A program made the position numbers and the translations under genes. Under the pieces are notes generated by a model that was not told the DNA's origin, did not search any database, and saw nothing but the letters and a program-made list of their open reading frames with translations. This document shows, piece by piece, positions 3,691-55,054 of a stretch of 64,000 nucleotides of DNA. The stretch is from positions 53,136-117,135 of IMG/VR virus record IMGVR_UViG_3300032296_004087. One strand, written 5' to 3'. Position 1 is the stretch's first letter; every line of letters begins with the position of its first letter. Source of the stretch: a virus.

Positions 3691-4482
3691 ATGAAGATTG
3701 TCATCTCAGAGGGCCAGTACGAAAGGTTGATTGAAACCGAAGAGGAGGAGAAAGTTCTTCGTATACCATCTTTGAAAATTTTCGATGATGATTGGTTTGT
3801 TTTACAAAAGTTTTTGGAGTTAAAGGGTAATCCACCTTATTCTATTGGGGGAGATTTGGACTTATCAGAATTACCAATTCAATCATTGGGAAACCTTCAA
3901 TCAGTTGGTGGGTTTTTGGATTTGAATGAAACACCAATTAAATCCCTTGGAAATCTTCAAACAGTTGGTGGAGATTTGGACTTGGAAGGAACACCAATTC
4001 AATCATTGGGAAACCTTGTATCAGTTGGTGGGACTTTGGATTTAAAAGGAACACCAATCAAATCTTTGGGAAACCTTAAATCCGTTGGCGGGGATTTATC
4101 TTTGGTAGGAAGAGCAATTGAATCTTTGGGAAACCTTGTATCAGTTGGTGGGGATTTATATTTGCAAGAAACACAAATCGAATCTTTAGAGAACCTACAA
4201 TCAGTTGGGGGAAAGTTGGATTTGAATTGGTCAAAAATCCGTTCTTTGGGAAACCTTCAATCTGTTGGTGGGGGTTTGGATTTGGAAAAAACACCAATTC
4301 AATCTCTTGGAAACCTAACATCCGTTGGTGGGTATTTGGATTTGAGATATTCACGAATTAAATCCTTGGGAAACCTTCAATCAGTTGGTGAGTTTTTGGA
4401 TTTGAGAAAAACACCACTATCTAAGATGTACACTAGAGAACAAATCCGAGAAACGGTAAATGTTGCGTATATCTATTTATAA
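3691..4482 (+). CDS. LRR-like repeat protein with nine 20-residue repeats
   Basis: 263 residues. The N-terminal tag MKIVISEGQYERLIETEEE carries an L-I-E site like a capsid-targeting tag. A conserved linker KVLRIPSLKIFDDDWFVLQKF follows, then nine complete copies of a 20-residue unit (GGxLxLxxTPIxSLGNLxSV) and a half repeat ending near TPLS. The C-terminal cap is YTREQIRETVNV. Repeat DNA is exactly 60 bp per unit. The unit resembles leucine-rich solenoid repeats, so a curved beta-solenoid binding surface is expected. The end of the gene encodes I-Y-L with codons that form the next TATTTAT promoter. Ligand unknown. Confidence 0.9.
   Translation: MKIVISEGQYERLIETEEEEKVLRIPSLKIFDDDWFVLQKFLELKGNPPYSIGGDLDLSELPIQSLGNLQSVGGFLDLNETPIKSLGNLQTVGGDLDLEGTPIQSLGNLVSVGGTLDLKGTPIKSLGNLKSVGGDLSLVGRAIESLGNLVSVGGDLYLQETQIESLENLQSVGGKLDLNWSKIRSLGNLQSVGGGLDLEKTPIQSLGNLTSVGGYLDLRYSRIKSLGNLQSVGEFLDLRKTPLSKMYTREQIRETVNVAYIYL
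4474..4480 (+). promoter_or_regulatory. TATTTAT promoter box inside the upstream gene's last codons
   Basis: The bases encode the C-terminal I-Y-L and run into the stop; the next ATG (4486) is 5 nt away. Confidence 0.6.
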
Positions 4483-4485
4483 GTT

Positions 4486-4917
4486 ATGAAGATTGTCATC
4501 TCAGAGAGCCAATATAACAAGTTGATTGAATCCGAAGAGGAGCAGAAAGTTCTTCGTATACCATCTTTGAAAATTTTCGATGATAATTGGTTTGTTTTAC
4601 AAAAGTTTTTGGAGTTAAAAGGTAATCCAACTTATTCAGTTGGTGGGGATTTGGATTTGCAAGGAACTCCAATCAAATCTCTTGGAAACCTTCAATTTGT
4701 TGGTGGGTATTTGTCTTTGCAAGACACATCAATTGAATCTCTCGGAAACCTAAAATCAGTTGGTGGGTATTTGAATTTGGCATATACATCAATCGAATCT
4801 CTTGGGAACCTTCAATATGTTGGTGGGGATTTGAGTTTGCATGGTACACCCTTATCGATTTACACTAGAGAACAAATCCGAGAAATGATAAATGTCGAAG
4901 GTAGAATTTATAAATAA
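4486..4917 (+). CDS. LRR-like repeat protein with three 20-residue repeats
   Basis: 143 residues, paralogue of its neighbours. The tag MKIVISESQYNKLIESEEE is followed by the same linker, three full GGxLxLxxTxIxSLGNLxxV units, a half repeat and the cap YTREQIREMINV. It starts 3 nt after the previous stop. Linker and cap are nearly identical to the 263-residue copy, so size differences are confined to the repeat block. Probably virion-associated by tag and promoter; function inferred only as ligand binding. Confidence 0.9.
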   Translation: MKIVISESQYNKLIESEEEQKVLRIPSLKIFDDNWFVLQKFLELKGNPTYSVGGDLDLQGTPIKSLGNLQFVGGYLSLQDTSIESLGNLKSVGGYLNLAYTSIESLGNLQYVGGDLSLHGTPLSIYTREQIREMINVEGRIYK

Positions 4918-4920
4918 ACC

Positions 4921-5475
4921 ATGAAGATTGTTATCTCAGAGAGCCAATACCAAAGGTTGATTGAATCCGAAGAAGAACAGAAAGTTCTTCGTATACCATC
5001 TTTGAAAATTTTCGATGATGATTGGTATGCTTTACAAAAGTTTTTGGAGTTGAAAGGTAATCCAACTTATTCAGTTGGTGGGGATTTGGATTTGCGTGAT
5101 TTACCAATTAAATCCTTGGGAAATCTTAAATCCGTTGGTGGAGATTTATATTTGGAAAGAACACCAATTAAATCATTGGGAAACCTTCAATCCATTAATG
5201 GAGATTTGTATTTGGGAGGAACAATAATAAAATCTCTTGGAAACTTAACATATGTCGGTGGGTTTTTGGATTTGAGAAGAACACCAATTGAATCCTTGGG
5301 AAACCTTCAATCCGTTGGTGGAGATTTGGATTTGTTTGGGGCTCAAATTAAATCATTGGGAAACCTTCAATCCGTTGGCGGGTATTTGGATTTTAGAAGT
5401 ACACCCTTATCTGATATGTACACTAAAGAACAAATCCTACAAATGGTAAATGTTGGTGATGATATCTATTATTAA
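4921..5475 (+). CDS. LRR-like repeat protein with five 20-residue repeats
   Basis: 184 residues with tag MKIVISESQYQRLIESEEE, shared linker, five full 20-residue units plus half repeat, and cap YTKEQILQMVNV. It is exactly 41 residues (two repeats plus one) longer than the preceding paralogue. The upstream stop region carries TTTATAAATA rather than a clean TATTTAT, so it may be read from the upstream promoter. Confidence 0.9.
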   Translation: MKIVISESQYQRLIESEEEQKVLRIPSLKIFDDDWYALQKFLELKGNPTYSVGGDLDLRDLPIKSLGNLKSVGGDLYLERTPIKSLGNLQSINGDLYLGGTIIKSLGNLTYVGGFLDLRRTPIESLGNLQSVGGDLDLFGAQIKSLGNLQSVGGYLDFRSTPLSDMYTKEQILQMVNVGDDIYY

Positions 5476-5478
5476 ATC

Positions 5479-6153
5479 ATGAAGATTGTTATCTCAGAGA
5501 GCCAATTTAACAGGTTGATTGAAACCGAAGAAGAGCAGAAAGTTCTTCGTATACCATCTTTGAAAATTTTCGATGATGATTGGGATGTTTTGCAAAAGTT
5601 TTTGGAGTTGAAAGGTAATCCACCTTATTCCTTGGGTGGGGATTTGTTTTTGATGGGAACACCGGTTAAATCCTTGGGAAACCTTGTATCCGTTGATGGG
5701 TATTTATACTTGGAAGAAACACCAATTAAATCATTGGGGAACCTTCAATCTGTTGGTGGGTATTTGGATTTGAGAGGAACTCCAATCAAATCCTTGGGAA
5801 ACTTAATATCAGTTGGTGGGGATTTGGTTATGGATGATACGCCAATTAAATCCTTGGGAAACCTTCAATTCGTTGGTAACAGGTTGTATATGCCAGGAAC
5901 AAAAATAGATTCTTTGGGAAACCTTAAATCTGTTGGTGGGGATTTGTCCTTACAAGGAAGTGAAATACAATCTTTAGGAAACTTAACAACAGTTGGTGGT
6001 GAGTTAAATTTAATCTCAACAAAAATCAATTCTCTTGGTAAATTAAATTTTGTTGGTAAAAATTTATATTTACAACGAACACCTTTATCTAATGAGTACA
6101 CTGAAGAACAAATCCGTAAAATGGTGGATGTTAAGGGTGAAATCTATTTATAA
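5479..6153 (+). CDS. LRR-like repeat protein with seven 20-residue repeats
   Basis: 224 residues: tag MKIVISESQFNRLIETEEE, shared linker, seven full units plus half repeat and the cap YTEEQIRKMVDV. Later repeats are more diverged (GNRLYMPGTKIDSLGNLKSV, GGELNLISTKINSLGKLNFV) than those of the other paralogues, suggesting an older copy. It is 40 residues longer than the five-repeat copy. Its last codons encode I-Y-L and form the promoter of the next gene. Confidence 0.9.
   Translation: MKIVISESQFNRLIETEEEQKVLRIPSLKIFDDDWDVLQKFLELKGNPPYSLGGDLFLMGTPVKSLGNLVSVDGYLYLEETPIKSLGNLQSVGGYLDLRGTPIKSLGNLISVGGDLVMDDTPIKSLGNLQFVGNRLYMPGTKIDSLGNLKSVGGDLSLQGSEIQSLGNLTTVGGELNLISTKINSLGKLNFVGKNLYLQRTPLSNEYTEEQIRKMVDVKGEIYL
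6145..6151 (+). promoter_or_regulatory. TATTTAT promoter box inside the upstream gene's last codons
   Basis: Overlaps the I-Y-L codons of the seven-repeat gene; ends 5 nt before the ATG at 6157. Confidence 0.6.
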
Positions 6154-6156
6154 GTT

Positions 6157-6432
6157 ATGAAAATAGTAATAACTAAACCACAACTTTCCATTTTTTTGAG
6201 AAGAAGATTTTCTGCAGAGGACCTTTTATGGATTGTTAATGATGTTAAGGAAATGATTGACGAGGGTTATGGTGTGGAATCTGCGGTGTATGATGGAATT
6301 AGGGAATTTATTAAAAGTAAAAATTTTATTGACATAGATGAATTCGGTGATGAACAATCCTATTGGAATTCTTATTTGAAGTATGAGATTGCACTTGTTT
6401 CTTATGTGAAATCTGAGTTGGGTTTGGATTAA
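6157..6432 (+). CDS. Small tagged protein of the FLRRR type, 91 residues
   Basis: Begins MKIVITKPQLSIFLRRRFSAEDL, keeping the MKIVI start of the repeat proteins but then diverging. It shares an FLRRR motif and overall size with the 105-residue protein at 8902. Mostly helical, acidic C-terminus, no known domain. It sits inside the repeat-protein cassette and is followed by a relic of a repeat-protein tail, so it seems to have replaced the body of a former paralogue. Confidence 0.82.
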   Translation: MKIVITKPQLSIFLRRRFSAEDLLWIVNDVKEMIDEGYGVESAVYDGIREFIKSKNFIDIDEFGDEQSYWNSYLKYEIALVSYVKSELGLD

Positions 6433-6435
6433 AAA

Positions 6436-6492
6436 ACATCTGCTAAGAATTACACTAAAGAGGACATGTTGGAAGTGATATCTATTTATAAG
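6436..6492 (+). pseudogene. Relic of an LRR-like gene 3' end
   Basis: Between the FLRRR gene and the last repeat gene, the DNA still translates as TSAKNYTKEDMLEVISIYK. This matches the C-terminal cap of the repeat proteins (LSxxYTxEQIxxxVxxxxIYL) without any repeats or start. It is followed by the same TATTTATAAGTTATGAAG junction, so it is a decayed end of a lost paralogue. Confidence 0.7.
6483..6489 (+). promoter_or_regulatory. Phage late-type promoter box TATTTAT
   Basis: Preserved within the relic tail, 5 nt before the ATG at 6495. Confidence 0.6.
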
Positions 6493-6494
6493 TT

Positions 6495-6929
6495 ATGAAG
6501 ATTGTTATCTCAGAAAGCCAATACCAAAGGTTGATTGAAGTCGAACAAGAGCAAAAAGTTCTTCATATTCCTTCATTGAAAGTTTTTGGTTTGGATAGAT
6601 TGGAAGCTTGGAACAACCTGCAAGAATTTCTGGAAAGAAAAGGTAATCCACCTTATTCTATTGGTGGTAATTTGGTCTTAGCAGAATTACCAATTGAATC
6701 TCTTGGAAACCTAAAATCAGTTGGTCAGGCTTTGGTTTTGTCAAATTCACTAATCAAATCTTTGGGTAATCTCGAATCCGTTGGTGATGATTTGTATTTA
6801 AACAGAACACCAATTCAATCTCTCGGAAATTTGAAATTCGTTGGTGGAGATTTGTATTTGAGAGGAACACCAATTTCCCAAAGTCCAATTACGGGTGTTA
6901 AAGTTGGGGGAGGAATTATGAGAGGGTAA
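6495..6929 (+). CDS. LRR-like repeat protein with three repeats, diverged C-terminus
   Basis: 144 residues. The tag MKIVISESQYQRLIEVEQE and a variant linker (SLKVFGLDRLEAWNNLQEF) precede three full 20-residue units and a half repeat ending RGTPIS. The usual YTxEQI cap is replaced by a short unrelated tail QSPITGVKVGGGIMRG. This suggests a recombination or deletion at the 3' end. It closes the cassette; the downstream intergenic DNA contains a C-run and no promoter box of either clear type. Confidence 0.88.
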   Translation: MKIVISESQYQRLIEVEQEQKVLHIPSLKVFGLDRLEAWNNLQEFLERKGNPPYSIGGNLVLAELPIESLGNLKSVGQALVLSNSLIKSLGNLESVGDDLYLNRTPIQSLGNLKFVGGDLYLRGTPISQSPITGVKVGGGIMRG

Positions 6930-9860: not shown

Positions 9861-10400
9861 ATGAACCTGCAAGAGAACATTATTAGAATCAAACAAGTGA
9901 TGGGTTTGAATGAGCAATACCCAGAAGGGATTGACCCTAAAGATTTGGAAGCCCAAGAAGTTCCCATCGATAATGTGGAACCCGAGGAAACCCCCAATCA
10001 GGAGGAACCAAAGAATTCTGATGATTTTTCAAATAGTGTGGTTCCACAGATTGTTTGGAGAGCTGGACGAGTTGGTAGCAGTCCCAAAGGTGGTGGTATA
10101 TGGTTTGGTGAAACAAAAAAAGATGTTGAAAACTTTGCCTGGTCCGTTAGGGATGAAAGAAGGGAAGGTTTGCCATACTATATCAACCTTCAAAACCCAA
10201 GGTATTATAAAAACTTCTGGAATGATTATTTGATTAAAGCTAAAGGAGCTGGACGAGATGTTCTTATGAATGCTTTAATGAATGCTGGTTATGATGGTAT
10301 TATCATTGATACTGATACTTGGAACGATACTGCAGATGAGTATGCCGTTACCTCAAAGCAATTTATTGTATTTGACCCCAAAAATGTGAAACCAGCATGA
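9861..10400 (+). CDS. Tagged ADP-ribosyltransferase-like protein
   Basis: 179 residues. Tag MNLQENIIRIKQVMGLNEQ ends in L-N-E followed by Q, a T4 prohead-protease-like site. After an acidic Pro-rich linker (to about residue 55) comes a domain with VWRAGR, GGGIWFGE, YYINLQNPR, and GYDGIIID...EYAV...FDPKNVK. This succession resembles the ADP-ribosyltransferase domain found in phage polyvalent proteins. T4 Alt is a packaged, injected ADP-ribosyltransferase, so tag plus domain suggests the same strategy. Family call is moderate; the exact catalytic Glu is not pinned down. Confidence 0.75.
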   Translation: MNLQENIIRIKQVMGLNEQYPEGIDPKDLEAQEVPIDNVEPEETPNQEEPKNSDDFSNSVVPQIVWRAGRVGSSPKGGGIWFGETKKDVENFAWSVRDERREGLPYYINLQNPRYYKNFWNDYLIKAKGAGRDVLMNALMNAGYDGIIIDTDTWNDTADEYAVTSKQFIVFDPKNVKPA

Positions 10401-22220: not shown

Positions 22221-22583
22221 ATGCAAGTTGTAATTGATTTGGACCAAGCTAGAAGAATAGGATTCAATGTCTTGGATAAGATATATGGACCTTTAAGAAA
22301 AAGGTGGGGAGAGATTTACAACGATGTTTATATCGACGAAAATTGGAAACCAAGGATTGGTGTTCACAATTCCATTTTAAGCCCTAAAGGGGTTTTCATA
22401 CTTAAAGAAGACTTTTTGAAGTTTAGAACTGTTATACCGATAAGTGAAACACAATTTGCCGATATTTTTGGTGATTGGTTGAAGAGAAATTACAGTATTG
22501 AAAACATTGATGTCTTAACCACCACAGGGGAGGACAAGTTGAAATTCATAGCTAATACTGACCGTTCGAAAGTCAGAGCTTAG
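22221..22583 (+). CDS. Late protein of the C-terminal DW family, 120 residues
   Basis: MQVVIDLDQARRIGFNVLDKIYGPL start, C-terminal ISETQFADIFGDWLKRNYSIENIDVL shared in pattern with the 9294 and 24621 proteins. Follows the helical-repeat gene by 5 nt in the same operon. Overlaps by 11 nt the 3' end of a convergent gene. Function unknown. Confidence 0.78.
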   Translation: MQVVIDLDQARRIGFNVLDKIYGPLRKRWGEIYNDVYIDENWKPRIGVHNSILSPKGVFILKEDFLKFRTVIPISETQFADIFGDWLKRNYSIENIDVLTTTGEDKLKFIANTDRSKVRA

Positions 22584-23412
22584 TAGAATTAATTATATTG
22601 TCCAAATAGGTGGGGTGATTATCCACCCTTCTCCAATTTGTTTCTTTGATTCCCCCCCTTATAACCTCGTTTACTATCATCTGAGATTGTTTCTCATAAC
22701 CCCAAGTTTCCTTGATACCATCTCTGATGATATGGTCGGCCCTCATTAATGAATGTAACTCACAATATTTAGTTTCTTTAATACCCCCCTCTAAAACAAT
22801 ATTAACCTCATTCATTCGTTTCATTTCTTTTGTAACAGGTTCAAAATTCATTGGGTTAAGTATTTCCAAAAAGTGTGGATTGGTTTCTTTTACACGATTA
22901 TTAATTATCCCTTCTACTCTTCCTTTATGATGGTATGAGTCATCGTGAGTTTCATTGATACCATTTTTGATGATATTACCAAGAAGAATCGGATTCATCT
23001 TTTGTCCAAAAGTTTTTTTCACCCCATTTTGAATGGTGTCTTCAATTGGGTTTTTCCGTTGGTTTGTTCCCCACTGGGTTTGTTTCACCCCATTTTGAAT
23101 GGTATCGTCAACCATTACCTTTGGCATAAATTCAGTATCATAAGTGTCTTTTACCCCATTTTTAATAAAATTCTCAACCCACTCGGTGATATAATTCTGA
23201 TTTTTGACCGTATCTTCAAACCCCATCAATCCTGCAAGAATCGACTGAAAGAAATAAAAATTATACCAAAGAGTTCCATCTTTAGTTAATTCTATGACCC
23301 ACTGTTTTTTGTCGGTCAAAATAATCCAAGTGGACCCATTGTTATAATAAGTGTCGGCACCCTTGAGTTTGAATTCCATAATCTTATGGAACATTTTTTT
23401 ATATCCGTTCAT
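22573..23412 (-). CDS. Protein with 22-residue NG[IV]KET repeats
   Basis: 279 residues. After an N-terminal WxxxL-rich domain of about 90 residues come at least seven tandem units of 21-23 residues, each with (I/V)IxxG(I/V)KET: NGVKDT, NGVKQT, NGVKKT, NGINET, NRVKET, GGIKET, DGIKET, GGIKET. Units differ in the variable stretch between motifs. I know no named family with this repeat. Host-like TATATTTG at 23418-23425 precedes the ATG by 5 nt, unlike most repeat proteins here. Confidence 0.82.
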   Translation of the reverse strand: MNGYKKMFHKIMEFKLKGADTYYNNGSTWIILTDKKQWVIELTKDGTLWYNFYFFQSILAGLMGFEDTVKNQNYITEWVENFIKNGVKDTYDTEFMPKVMVDDTIQNGVKQTQWGTNQRKNPIEDTIQNGVKKTFGQKMNPILLGNIIKNGINETHDDSYHHKGRVEGIINNRVKETNPHFLEILNPMNFEPVTKEMKRMNEVNIVLEGGIKETKYCELHSLMRADHIIRDGIKETWGYEKQSQMIVNEVIRGGIKETNWRRVDNHPTYLDNIINSTKL

Positions 23413-34803: not shown

Positions 34804-35412
34804 ATGAACATCAAGGATATACTTTTGGAATATGTTGAAAACTTGGAGCAACCAACTTTAGTCTTAAAGGAGGATGTTGACATCTCAGACCATTTACAAT
34901 ATCATATTGATAACAAGTTGTCTTTAACCGACAATGTCTTTAGAGTTTATTCAGAAGGGTATTTTAAACTTGTTAATGAAGTTCGTGGTCTTTGGCAAGA
35001 GGGTCTTATCACCCTTAATGAAGAGGATACCCTAATGGTGGAATCAGACTTGGGTAAAACCGCCGAGTTCGAGGGTGAATATGTTTATCTTGATGCCCCT
35101 GTTTATACTGAGGAGGGAATTAACGAAGCGGAATATCGCGGAAAAAAAGTTGACCTTAACAAACCATTCAGAACATCAGGTGGTCCGAAGAAATTTGCCG
35201 TATATGTAAAATCAGATAAGGGTAATGTGAAAAAAGTAACCTTCGGTGACCCAAATCTTAGAGTGAGAAATAATAACAAAAAAGCTTCCAAGTCATTTAG
35301 AGCCCGTCATAAGTGTGACCAAAAGAAAGACAGAACAACGGCTGGTTATTGGAGCTGTAATGTTGGACGTTATGCGAAACAACTTGGACTCTCTTCATCG
35401 AACTCTTGGTGA
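34804..35412 (+). CDS. Tagged late protein with C-terminal HxC...C motif
   Basis: 202 residues. MNIKDILLEYVENLEQPTL is tag-like (L-L-E, then L-E-Q). Near residues 125-155, KKFAVYVKSDKGNVKKVTFGDPNL, and at the end SFRARHKCDQKKDRTTAGYW followed by SC. I recall this FGDP...RHxCxxKxDxxTxGYWSC pattern from uncharacterised proteins of T4-like and other large marine phages. A metal-binding Cys/His site is plausible. Likely virion-associated. Confidence 0.82.
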   Translation: MNIKDILLEYVENLEQPTLVLKEDVDISDHLQYHIDNKLSLTDNVFRVYSEGYFKLVNEVRGLWQEGLITLNEEDTLMVESDLGKTAEFEGEYVYLDAPVYTEEGINEAEYRGKKVDLNKPFRTSGGPKKFAVYVKSDKGNVKKVTFGDPNLRVRNNNKKASKSFRARHKCDQKKDRTTAGYWSCNVGRYAKQLGLSSSNSW

Positions 35413-50887: not shown

Positions 50888-51538
50888 CTAAAATCCGAGG
50901 ATATCATCAACTATTTCCTCGGAGGTTAACAATTTCCATTCACGAGGATGTTCGTAAGACCAGAATTTTTTCCATAAACCAAACCAAGTTGTGTTTTCAA
51001 CTCTTTGGTCTCCAATACTACGGAAATCCTGACTAGTTTTTGGATAACGCCCTATGCTATAGACTTTGTAAAATTCGAAAACATCTGTAGAGAAATAATT
51101 TTTATTACGATGGTTCAATTCATCGAAATGAGTTCTTATTACAGGCTTGCAACCGTGTAAATCGGTGTACAACAAACATTTTTCATACCACAAAGTAGCC
51201 TCTTTTAAATCATGACTATCGATGTTGAATAAAACTAATTTTTCTCTATCATCGAATCTATGGTGAAAGATTTGTACTAATCCGTGGTTTACATCTAACT
51301 TATAAACTAAAAGTTCGAAGTCATAATAAAATTTCACATCATACTGAAATACTTGAACTCCATAACAAGAAGAAGGTTCTTTAATTAGATGATATCCCTC
51401 TAAATAATATGATTCAGTAGAATTTTTGGGATACTCTCTTATTTCTACATAGTAATAATTATCAGGACCTTCTACTCGAACCCTAACTCCATTTTCTAAA
51501 AAATAATGAATTCCAATGTTATTTATTTTCGTATACAT
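50888..51538 (-). CDS. Hypothetical protein, 216 residues
   Basis: I take the ATG at 51538 (MYTKINNIGIHYF), overlapping the end of the carbamoyltransferase gene by 20 nt; ATG 51547 is an alternative three codons upstream. Beta-rich, aromatic, His-containing protein with FHHRFDDREKLVLFN. No family recognised. Position at the end of the carbamoyltransferase operon suggests a linked role. Confidence 0.72.
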   Translation of the reverse strand: MYTKINNIGIHYFLENGVRVRVEGPDNYYYVEIREYPKNSTESYYLEGYHLIKEPSSCYGVQVFQYDVKFYYDFELLVYKLDVNHGLVQIFHHRFDDREKLVLFNIDSHDLKEATLWYEKCLLYTDLHGCKPVIRTHFDELNHRNKNYFSTDVFEFYKVYSIGRYPKTSQDFRSIGDQRVENTTWFGLWKKFWSYEHPREWKLLTSEEIVDDILGF

Positions 51539-53111
51539 AATCTCCAATAACTAATTTATCAATCACTTTATTTTTAAGGTGAACAAAAGCATTTTCGGGG
51601 TGCTCAATAATGGGTTCGTTATGAGCATTGAATGAGGTGTTAAGTAGTAATGGGATACCTGAGAGTTCATAGTACGAATTCATAAGTTCCCAAACTTTGG
51701 GAAGATTTTCTTTTTCCACTACCTGAGGTCTGGCAGTTTTATCCGATTTCTGAATTACTGCGGGAATTTTATAAATCCATGGTTCATGGGTTGGAAATGT
51801 TAAAGTCATAAACTGAGCGGCATACTTGGATTTTGCGGTCGGGAAAACCGTTTCAAAAAACTCACCCATTATCATTGGCGCAAAAGGCATTGTATCATAT
51901 CTTTTCAATCTTCGATTTAACTCTGCGTGGGTATTGTAATCTGTAGGTCTTACCAAAATACTCCTCGCACCCAAGGAACGTGGTCCAAGTTCCATTTTAC
52001 CTTGAAACCATCCAATAATCAAACCTTTATTTAAATCCGTCGCAATTTCATCAACAATATATTTTTTTACTAAAAAGTCATGTTTTGTTGCCAAATTTAT
52101 AACTTCTTCATCTGAATAATCGAAACCAAAATAAACATTTTTAAGTTTTATTGGTTTTGTAATTTCACCTAATTCAACTGCTTTATGAATTGCAGCACCT
52201 AAAGAAAGTCCTTCATCACCCATTGGAGGAAGAATGTATATTTCTTCAACCCACGGTAATTCATTTATTTTTTGATTCAGTTTAACATTCGCAAAAAGAC
52301 CACCTGAAAAACAAAGTTTCTTGTAGTCGGGCATTTTCTTGTGTAGGTCGTCGATAAATCTCAACATCAATTCCTCAGTAAAGTATTGTAAATTGAAACT
52401 GAAAACTTCTCGTTTTTTAAGAGTGTCAAAAAAACCTTCTTCGAGTAATCGTTCCATGACAAACTTAGTTTTTTGGTCAGTTCCCGAAGGATAAAATTTC
52501 AAATCATTATATGATAGGATACTATGTAGAATTTTTTGGATTCTTTCATCGTAATAACCATCAGGTGCCATTCCCATGACCTTACCTTCATCCTTACACA
52601 TTATCCATTGAAACCTACAATTTGAATTACGACCCATCATCCAATTTGTTATAAATCCCCAAAGTTGTGAAAGACTTCCAGAGTTAGTTCCCGATAATCG
52701 GTGAACTTCATTCATCTTACCGTCCTCACATGCATATACTCTCATAAAAGAAGATTCTCCACCACCATCGTATGAAATTGAAAGTACTTTTCCTTCCATT
52801 CCACTTGTAAAATAAGCTGCGGTATTATGTGCACGGTGGTGAGACACTTTAGAATAATTATCATTAGTTAGTCTCCTAGCATATACCGGTGGTGCGGGCT
52901 CAGCAAAAACTACATAATCAGCATCTTTGAGTTTTATATTAGTTTTATCTTCGACAGCCTTTAGTGATAAATCGGGGTACGCACCATAGTCTTCTCCCGA
53001 TTTAATTCGTTTGATTCTCTCTTCTTCTACAGCATGTATTATTTCACCGTCAACAATCAAAGTTGTTGATGGACTATGTCCTGCTGCGTAAAGTCCATAG
53101 ATTACACTCAT
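51519..53111 (-). CDS. Carbamoyltransferase, NodU/CmcH family
   Basis: 530 residues. N-terminal Kae1-like domain: GLYAAGHSPSTTLIVDGEII, HHRAHNTAAYF (metal His pair), SYDGGGESSF and SGGLFANVKLN. C-terminal YrdC-like/NodU domain: GWFQGKMELGPRSLGARSIL and NTSFNAHNEPI. The family transfers a carbamoyl group from carbamoyl phosphate, via carbamoyl-AMP, to hydroxyls of sugars or antibiotics. Seven nt from a second, divergent homologue. Acceptor could be a surface glycan or nucleotide-linked sugar. Confidence 0.95.
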   Translation of the reverse strand: MSVIYGLYAAGHSPSTTLIVDGEIIHAVEEERIKRIKSGEDYGAYPDLSLKAVEDKTNIKLKDADYVVFAEPAPPVYARRLTNDNYSKVSHHRAHNTAAYFTSGMEGKVLSISYDGGGESSFMRVYACEDGKMNEVHRLSGTNSGSLSQLWGFITNWMMGRNSNCRFQWIMCKDEGKVMGMAPDGYYDERIQKILHSILSYNDLKFYPSGTDQKTKFVMERLLEEGFFDTLKKREVFSFNLQYFTEELMLRFIDDLHKKMPDYKKLCFSGGLFANVKLNQKINELPWVEEIYILPPMGDEGLSLGAAIHKAVELGEITKPIKLKNVYFGFDYSDEEVINLATKHDFLVKKYIVDEIATDLNKGLIIGWFQGKMELGPRSLGARSILVRPTDYNTHAELNRRLKRYDTMPFAPMIMGEFFETVFPTAKSKYAAQFMTLTFPTHEPWIYKIPAVIQKSDKTARPQVVEKENLPKVWELMNSYYELSGIPLLLNTSFNAHNEPIIEHPENAFVHLKNKVIDKLVIGDYVYENK

Positions 53112-53118
53112 AATAAAA

Positions 53119-54786
53119 TTAATTTTTACTAATAATATAATTTTCAGCTATTAGAAAATCTAAATTACAATCTAAAAAAGATTTAATAGCATCAAAGGGT
53201 GTTTCAATCATTGGTTCGTGACCACCATTGTAGCTAGTGTTCAACAAAACAGGGATTCCAGTTTTTTCGTAAAATTTATTTATAAGTTTAAAAAACTTTT
53301 CATTGCTTTTTGGTGTGACAGATTGAAATCTTGCGGACCCATCGATATGGACTACCGCAGGGATTCTTTCTTTCCATTCATCTGCAACAGTTGCTGTAAC
53401 TAACATAAATGGAGAAAAATAATCAGTTTGGAATATTTCTTTCTGTAAATCAAAAATTACTGCAGGTGCAAAAGGACGATACCATTCTCTATGTTTATGG
53501 TCATGGTTAACTCTGTCTTTCATCCATTTTGATGTGGGTGATGCAATAATTGAACGATTTCCCAAAGCTCTAGGTCCAATTTCGGAACCTCCTTGGAACC
53601 ATCCAATAACTTTATTTTCAACAAGTCTGTCAGTTATGGTTTCAACAATATCATCAAAATTATCCCAATATTCTACTCGGAGGTTTGGAAATTTACTCGT
53701 AGCTTCTTCAACATCTCTGTTTGAATACTTTTTACCAAAGTAGGGCCACAATGGAAATGTTTGTTGAATTTCAGCAACTTGTTGATATGCGTACCACGCA
53801 CATCCAAGAGGGATACCACTGTCATCAGCTGGAGGAACAAAAAATGTATTTTCGAATAGTCCTGAATTTATGATAATTTCATTAGAATTACAATTCAAAA
53901 AAGAACCCCCTGCAGTACAAACATTATTTGAGTTTGTGCGTTTTTTAATCATATCTGCCAATATCAGGGATGCCTTTTCTTGTTCTCTTTGATAAACCCC
54001 TGCAACATTAGCTTTAGTTTGAAAATCATTTCTCCAAGTAATATGTGGAAGAATCCCACCGTTTGGTATATGAATGTCATCGTTTTCATATTTTATGTAT
54101 TCAGGGAAATTCTTTACAAATTCTGAATTTGCATATGAAGCCAATCCCATAAGTTTACCTGCCGGCCAAACATTACTGTTGGGTTCATATATCAATTGTA
54201 AACATCCCTGTGAATACATAGTGCCTAAGGACACTCCATCATTACTTTCAAGGGGTACGGGATATTTTATCCATTTCTTATAAACTTCACTATGACCACT
54301 TCTGGTAAAATGATACAAAGAAATACCTTCAGTCCAATCTTCACCCTCATTGAGTCCTTCATGTGATTTTTCAGGATACCATTCACCAAGTTTAGTTTTA
54401 TGATTTAAAATTGAACCCGATGCATCTGCGACAATAACTGCAGCTTCATCGAAACCTGAAGAAAAGAAAGAAGAATATGCGTGAGCCAAATGATGAGGCA
54501 TGAACACAAGTTTCTTTTTTGGTACTTGGAAGATTTTATTGAAAAGTTCGTATGTGTTATCGACCAATTCAGTTGAACTGTAAACAATGAGGTCTAAATC
54601 ATCTACGGTAATATCCAATACGGAAAGACAATACATAATAGACTCCACAGGAATTGCACCACCTGTGAATGCTCCATCATGTTTCCTTCTTGTAAGTCTT
54701 TCTTGTGTTATTCCAACAATTACTTGACCATTTTTGATTATTACAGCACCTTTATCGTGCCCAACGGAGAAACCTAAGACTGTCAT
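53119..54786 (-). CDS. Carbamoyltransferase, NodU/CmcH family, second copy
   Basis: 555 residues from ATG 54786 (MTVLGFSVGHDKGAVIIKNG); the in-frame extension to 54819 is poor coding sequence. HHLAHAYSSFFSSG is the metal site, CTAGGSFLNCNSNEI and GWFQGGSEIGPRALGNRSII the conserved C-terminal segments, NTSYNGGHEPM near the end. Only the family core is shared with its neighbour, so the pair is not a recent duplication and may act on two substrates or as a heteromer. Confidence 0.95.
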   Translation of the reverse strand: MTVLGFSVGHDKGAVIIKNGQVIVGITQERLTRRKHDGAFTGGAIPVESIMYCLSVLDITVDDLDLIVYSSTELVDNTYELFNKIFQVPKKKLVFMPHHLAHAYSSFFSSGFDEAAVIVADASGSILNHKTKLGEWYPEKSHEGLNEGEDWTEGISLYHFTRSGHSEVYKKWIKYPVPLESNDGVSLGTMYSQGCLQLIYEPNSNVWPAGKLMGLASYANSEFVKNFPEYIKYENDDIHIPNGGILPHITWRNDFQTKANVAGVYQREQEKASLILADMIKKRTNSNNVCTAGGSFLNCNSNEIIINSGLFENTFFVPPADDSGIPLGCAWYAYQQVAEIQQTFPLWPYFGKKYSNRDVEEATSKFPNLRVEYWDNFDDIVETITDRLVENKVIGWFQGGSEIGPRALGNRSIIASPTSKWMKDRVNHDHKHREWYRPFAPAVIFDLQKEIFQTDYFSPFMLVTATVADEWKERIPAVVHIDGSARFQSVTPKSNEKFFKLINKFYEKTGIPVLLNTSYNGGHEPMIETPFDAIKSFLDCNLDFLIAENYIISKN

Positions 54787-54793
54787 ATTTTTA

Positions 54794-55054
54794 TTAATTT
54801 TCAGTTTTATCTTTATCACTAAGAGCTACTATAGTTCCTTCAACAATATCCATTTCTAAATTTTGCACGTGAATTTGATTTTCCAAACGGTAAATAACAA
54901 CTTTGGTTGTGTTTTCTCCCATGTCAACACCCGAATCGGGGACAATATCAACAACAATACCTTGTTTGTCATCTAAAATTAAGGAAAGTGCTTTGGAAAA
55001 CAAAAGTGAGGCGTTCATCAAATCTTGATGACTGAGTGGGTTATTTGTATTCAT
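54794..55054 (-). CDS. Small hypothetical protein, 86 residues
   Basis: MNTNNPLSHQDLMNASLLFS, then beta-rich acidic body with GIVVDIVPDSGVDMGENTTK. Seven nt before the start of the second carbamoyltransferase, so probably co-transcribed. Unknown function. Confidence 0.72.
   Translation of the reverse strand: MNTNNPLSHQDLMNASLLFSKALSLILDDKQGIVVDIVPDSGVDMGENTTKVVIYRLENQIHVQNLEMDIVEGTIVALSDKDKTEN

What the first reader, a model, noticed from the sequence alone, without database searches (positions are those of the whole stretch)
3691..6929. Repeat-protein cassette whose copies have 9, 3, 5, 7 and 3 repeats
Five paralogues share tag, linker and mostly the cap but differ in the number of exactly 60-bp repeats, always odd and changing in steps of two. 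Protein lengths 143, 184, 224 and 263 differ by about 40 residues. This suggests gain and loss of 120-bp double units, perhaps because a two-repeat unit is the structural turn. It could be a fast-evolving binding-surface generator, such as variable receptor or effector binding.
Basis: seen in the sequence. Interest (0 to 1): 0.75.

Follow-up and report, generated by a model that had tools for sequence, protein, structure and literature searches.

The report
Phage leucine-rich-repeat proteins with packaging-like tags
A large virus of bacteria carries five tandem copies of a leucine-rich-repeat protein whose repeat number changes freely from copy to copy and phage to phage, and whose removable-looking first 15 residues suggest it is packed in the virus head and injected into the host, where it could bind host proteins.

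Summary
In detail: five tandem paralogues at 3691-6929 carry 9, 3, 5, 7 and 3 exact 60-bp (20-aa) repeats between a shared N-terminal tag and linker and a mostly shared cap. The "odd only, steps of two" reading fails. In 82 strictly counted relatives from about 100 viral loci, counts run from 1 to 10 (39 even, 43 odd). The p2-like gene of a related phage has 4 repeats. Syntenic loci differ by one or four repeats. Alternate repeats are not more alike (p=0.72). AlphaFold2 gives one solenoid turn per repeat and folds a 4-repeat relative equally well. The proteins are leucine-rich-repeat solenoids. The new element is the tag. It is exchangeable between unrelated proteins, lies outside the confident fold, and in the LRR family usually ends in (L/I)xE at a fixed position. 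That is the cut motif of the T4 head protease gp21. Twelve related records carry gp21 and a T4-type portal, and relatives' capsid proteins keep the cut motif. I infer a T4-internal-protein-like payload: packaged, trimmed, injected, and binding host targets through a surface diversified by repeat recombination. Packaging and target are untested, and the 117-kb window record lacks the head genes.

The parts
3691..4482 (+). LRR paralogue p1, 263 aa, 9 repeats
   Evidence: AF2 pLDDT 93.3
4486..4917 (+). LRR paralogue p2, 143 aa, 3 repeats
4921..5475 (+). LRR paralogue p3, 184 aa, 5 repeats
5479..6153 (+). LRR paralogue p4, 224 aa, 7 repeats
6495..6929 (+). LRR paralogue p5, 144 aa, 3 repeats, divergent cap
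3691..3735 (+). N-terminal tag MKIVISEGQYERLIE of p1: predicted capsid-targeting propeptide, predicted cut after E15 (same tag starts at 4486, 4921, 5479, 6495)
   Evidence: (L/I)xE with E at residue 15; pLDDT about 64 in the tag against >90 in the body
3736..3843 (+). conserved linker / N-cap VLRIPSLKIFDDDW..LQKFLELKGNPPYS
   Evidence: alignments; helices in model
3844..4383 (+). array of nine 60-bp repeats VGGxLxLxxTPIxSLGNLxS in p1
4384..4479 (+). C-terminal half-repeat and cap (TPLS..YTREQIR..VNV..IYL) of p1
6157..6432 (+). unrelated 91-aa gene with a class-A-like tag (MKIVITKPQL) sitting inside the cassette
6433..6494 (+). remnant of a lost repeat-gene cap, in frame with relatives' caps and joined to p5 by sequence shared with other gene junctions
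9861..10400 (+). nearby tagged protein with an ADP-ribosyltransferase domain (ART-PolyVal, E 9e-6, below the curated cut-off)

Best explanation
The cassette encodes leucine-rich-repeat (LRR) solenoid proteins carried as payload by a T4-type large phage. The first 15 residues act as an exchangeable capsid-targeting propeptide. It puts the protein into the prohead core and is cut after (L/I)xE by a gp21-type prohead protease, and the mature LRR body is injected with the DNA to bind host proteins, most plausibly defence or regulatory proteins. Repeat number and the exposed residues of each 20-aa turn diversify by point change, whole-unit gain and loss, and exchange of units between tandem paralogues. 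Shown by computation: the LRR fold, the tag and its motif, tag exchange, free variation of repeat number, signs of unit exchange, and T4-type head genes with gp21 in relatives. Inferred: packaging, cleavage, injection, and the host target.
For: LRR: PDB LRR chain matched at E 4.9e-12; AF2 pLDDT 93.3 with DSSP agreement 97% at lag 20; top fold matches are LRR proteins. Tag: 40 of 49 distinct LRR-family tags carry a hydrophobic-x-E motif, always with L (34) or I (6) although V, M, F were allowed, a variable middle residue, and E only at position 11, 15 or 19. The same linker-LRR-cap body is joined to at least two dissimilar tags, MKIIITESQYxxLxE and MKNLIRKILKE. Proteins unrelated to LRRs in the same phages carry class-A or E tags; of all 51 class-A/E tagged proteins (LRR ones included) 41 have [LIVMF]xE near the N-terminus against 340 of 829 untagged. 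In G002 most tagged genes lie together at 171-194 kb. Tag residues 1-20 have low pLDDT in both models. gp21 substrates are cut after L/I-X-E and internal proteins have 10-19-residue propeptides (PMC9026906); T4 IPII and IPIII start MKTYQEFIAE|A. gp21 (PF03420) and T4 portal (PF07230) co-occur in 12 of 13 records with a portal, and relatives' capsid proteins keep HLINE|A or QLVTE|A where T4 has FLTE|A. A neighbour with tag MNLQENIIRIKQVMGLNE has a weak ART domain, as T4 packages the ADP-ribosyltransferase Alt. Diversification: syntenic genes with 8, 7 and 3 repeats; a unit 59/60 identical in p1 and a relative's gene at a different position; pN/pS 1.5 against 0.19.
Against: No gp21, portal or terminase match in the 117-kb window record, which lacks a head module, so the link rests on relatives. 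Tags are not visibly homologous to T4's. Shuffled tags gave a mean of 29.5 of 49 with the motif and reached 40 in at least one of 1000 trials, so the count alone is weak; the fixed position and the L/I restriction carry the weight. Of 30 class-A tags on any protein in three phages only 16 have E15, and some have no nearby site. A subset of LRR relatives has no such tag (MLNKLSFNNIFIPRK...). No virion proteomics were available.
Confidence: 0.5

Rival explanations
1. The LRR proteins are made inside the infected cell after infection and inhibit or modulate host proteins there. The tag is a common N-terminal element (translation, dimerisation or localisation) that is not cut by a head protease.
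For: Tag-less LRR relatives exist; some tagged proteins lack an (L/I)xE site; the cassette lies outside any head or tail module.
Against: Fixed-position (L/I)xE with a free middle residue in the LRR family, tag low in pLDDT and outside the folded body, exchange of dissimilar tags on one body, presence of gp21 in relatives.
Confidence: 0.32
2. One reading: variable receptor-binding or other virion-surface proteins whose arrays change in double units.
For: High variability of exposed residues; LRRs are binding folds.
Against: Not near tail genes; no double-unit steps; tag motif fits interior head proteins.
Confidence: 0.07
3. Structural filler or core proteins: LRR arrays help form the prohead core or occupy head volume, with length variation nearly neutral.
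For: Tags would target the core; lengths vary without an obvious rule.
Against: Excess of amino-acid changes at exposed positions with a conserved core suggests selection on a binding surface, though the position classes were chosen by variability in the window repeats.
Confidence: 0.08

Closest known systems
T4 internal proteins IPI, IPII, IPIII (and Alt) with capsid-targeting sequences
   Same: Short N-terminal peptide ending in (L/I)xE, variable bodies behind a shared tag, gp21-type protease and T4 head genes in relatives, an ART-domain neighbour.
   Different: Tag sequence not homologous; at least two dissimilar tag types; body is an LRR array in multiple tandem copies; packaging not demonstrated.
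Bacterial LRR effectors such as SspH1, IpaH and YopM
   Same: LRR fold, ranked among the weak PDB fold matches; known to bind host proteins.
   Different: 20-aa unit of a different sequence, no ligase domain, phage-encoded, target unknown; Foldseek E above 0.001.
LRR protein of the polar flagellar motor (PDB 8z5u)
   Same: Best sequence and fold match, E 4.9e-12.
   Different: Part of a flagellar motor assembly, no such tag reported, no multicopy length variation known.
LRR proteins annotated in uncultured Caudovirales and the Edwardsiella phage Edno5 protein gp47
   Same: LRR repeats, phage-encoded.
   Different: Edno5 gp47 lies beside CIII in a lambda-like phage, without tag or tandem paralogues.

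Membership tests
Leucine-rich-repeat proteins | Tandem 20-30 aa units with conserved leucines forming a solenoid | tested here: met
   27 units at exact 20-aa spacing; confident AF2 solenoid; phmmer to PDB LRR chain E 4.9e-12
Leucine-rich-repeat proteins | Match to a Pfam LRR model above its cut-off | tested here: not met
   LRR_4 and Recep_L_domain below cut-off; the 20-aa unit differs from the modelled ones
T4-type internal (CTS) proteins | N-terminal propeptide of 10-19 residues ending in (L/I)xE | tested here: met
   The sequence motif only: LIE at 13-15 in all five; 40 of 49 distinct LRR-family tags. Cleavage itself not tested
T4-type internal (CTS) proteins | Same phage encodes a gp21-type prohead protease | tested here: inconclusive
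   Absent from the 117-kb window record, which lacks head genes; present in 12 related records
T4-type internal (CTS) proteins | Tag homologous to the T4 CTS (MKTYQEFIAE) | tested here: not met
   Only length and cut motif agree, by inspection
T4-type internal (CTS) proteins | Protein present, trimmed, in the virion and injected | not testable with these tools
   No virion proteomics available
   39 even, 43 odd; p=0.72; 4-repeat relative folds with pLDDT 91.5

The most novel reading that the evidence does not exclude
T4-type large phages of aquatic bacteria carry an injected arsenal of dozens of unrelated proteins behind interchangeable capsid-targeting tags. The LRR cassette is its recombining, repertoire-like part: several binders per phage whose length and contact residues are reshuffled to meet changing host defence proteins.
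Probability: 0.28. Interest if true: 0.8.

Novelty: new variant of a known kind. Interest (0 to 1): 0.5.

Why it matters
If right, it links a multicopy, fast-changing LRR family of large phages to the T4 internal-protein route, gives a sequence signature for finding other injected phage proteins in metagenomes, and offers an LRR-based source of candidate anti-defence binders. It also corrects a tempting but wrong rule about repeat parity.

Tried and rejected
Two-unit periodicity within genes, and parity of position between genes: no signal (the first run, mis-registered p2 and was redone). Odd-only counts: rejected on relatives. A first DNA pattern with one base too few found nothing; the corrected one found 101 stretches. 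Pfam and PHROGs gave no clear family for the five proteins. The PDB code 8z5u found no relevant paper; Foldseek showed it belongs to a flagellar motor. No paper on LRR proteins as T4-type internal proteins was found in the held library. A cultured relative by capsid protein, Flavobacterium phage immuto, has few look-alike tags and its annotation marks no virion-proteomics data for them.

Full report
What is there. Five consecutive genes encode proteins with a 15-residue tag (MKIVISExQYxxLIE), a conserved linker, 9, 3, 5, 7 or 3 units of VGGxLxLxxTPIxSLGNLxS at an exact 20-residue spacing, and a C-terminal cap that the fifth lacks. A sixth, unrelated tagged gene (6157-6432) sits between the fourth and fifth and is followed by an in-frame remnant of another repeat-gene cap, so the cassette has been rearranged at the tag and cap sequences. 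The window is part of a 117,135-base viral record.

Parity and double units. In the window all counts are odd, but equal parity among five genes is a 1-in-16 event, and the counts become even if the half-unit at the cap is included. Relatives settle it. Among 82 strictly counted complete genes from viral contigs, 39 are even and 43 odd. A related phage (L009) has a 4-repeat gene whose cap matches that of the 3-repeat p2. Syntenic genes in three related contigs have 8, 7 and 3 repeats behind upstream flanks that are 95-97% identical over about 450 bases. Within genes, repeats an even number of units apart are no more alike than the others (amino acids p=0.72, DNA p=0.32), and position parity does not match between genes (p=0.81 and 0.90). 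The predicted structure repeats every 20 residues (97% agreement at lag 20), and a 4-repeat relative folds as confidently (pLDDT 91.5) as the 9-repeat protein (93.3).

What the proteins are. They are LRR solenoids: one PDB LRR chain matches by sequence (E 4.9e-12) and the best fold matches are LRR proteins, although no Foldseek PDB match reaches E 0.001 and Pfam LRR models stay below cut-off. Over 402 distinct repeats, core positions are nearly fixed and eight positions vary. In close pairs pN/pS is about 1.5 at the variable positions and 0.19 at the others. The classes were chosen from variability in the window repeats and pairs are not independent, so this supports but does not prove diversifying selection. 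That the variable positions are the exposed ones is inferred from the LRR pattern; solvent exposure was not computed. A unit 59/60 identical in DNA occurs in p1 and in a relative's gene at a different array position, which points to exchange of whole units.

The tag. The same LRR body occurs behind at least two dissimilar tags (MKIIITESQYxxLxE and MKNLIRKILKE types), and the tags also occur on proteins unrelated to LRRs. In 40 of 49 distinct LRR-family tags there is an (L/I)xE with E at residue 11, 15 or 19 only; the pattern allowed V, M and F in the first place but only L (34) and I (6) occur, while the middle residue is free. The bare count is not strong evidence (shuffles average 29.5); the fixed position and the L/I restriction are. 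Many of these tags are related to each other, so they are not independent samples. Tag residues have low pLDDT and the body starts confidently just after. T4's prohead protease gp21 cuts after L/I-X-E and its internal proteins carry 10-19-residue propeptides that target them to the head (PMC9026906; T4 sequences read). Twelve related records have gp21 and 13 have a T4-type portal, 12 in common. Their capsid proteins keep an (L/I/V)xE site where T4 is cut. The window record itself shows no head genes. Against the idea, only 16 of 30 class-A tags across three phages have E at residue 15 and some have no nearby site, and a group of LRR relatives has no tag.

Most likely mechanism. I take the LRR proteins to be packaged, trimmed and injected payload, like T4 internal proteins, that bind host proteins. 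An ART-like neighbour behind another tag (below cut-off) fits a payload island, as does the clustering of tagged genes in G002 at 171-194 kb. Shown: fold, repeat statistics, tag exchange, motif, presence of gp21 in relatives. Inferred: packaging, cleavage, injection, target. The family appears largely viral: 101 viral stretches matched the repeat pattern against 4 in bacterial genomes with a slightly longer form of it.

Verdict. Observation confirmed; the parity interpretation is refuted; the binding-surface idea is retained in a changed form. New variant of a known kind, interest 0.5.

Noticed in passing
22573-23412 (- strand); L021 9440-11659 (-); L022 15471-16352 (-): A second repeat family (VEDTIQNGVKxT units) varies greatly in length between phages: 279, 739 and 293 aa.
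   Followed up: no
6157-6494: An unrelated tagged 91-aa gene seems to have replaced the body of a sixth repeat gene, leaving only its cap remnant.
   Followed up: partly
9861-10400: Protein with tag MNLQENIIRIKQVMGLNE and a weak ADP-ribosyltransferase (ART-PolyVal) domain.
   Followed up: partly
L067 2003-3751; L041, L064, L067, L118: Large viral contigs with many tandem LRR genes without the usual tag, one of 583 aa with about 25 repeats.
   Followed up: partly
L010 5013-5756 (Edwardsiella phage Edno5): An LRR protein of related sequence beside CIII in a lambda-like phage.
   Followed up: no
51519-54819 (- strand): Two adjacent similar proteins of 530 and 566 aa that look like carbamoyltransferases; judged by eye only, no family search run.
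   Followed up: no
34804-35412: Protein matching phrog_7595 (E 4e-14, unknown function); G002 has a similar-looking protein behind a class-A tag.
   Followed up: partly
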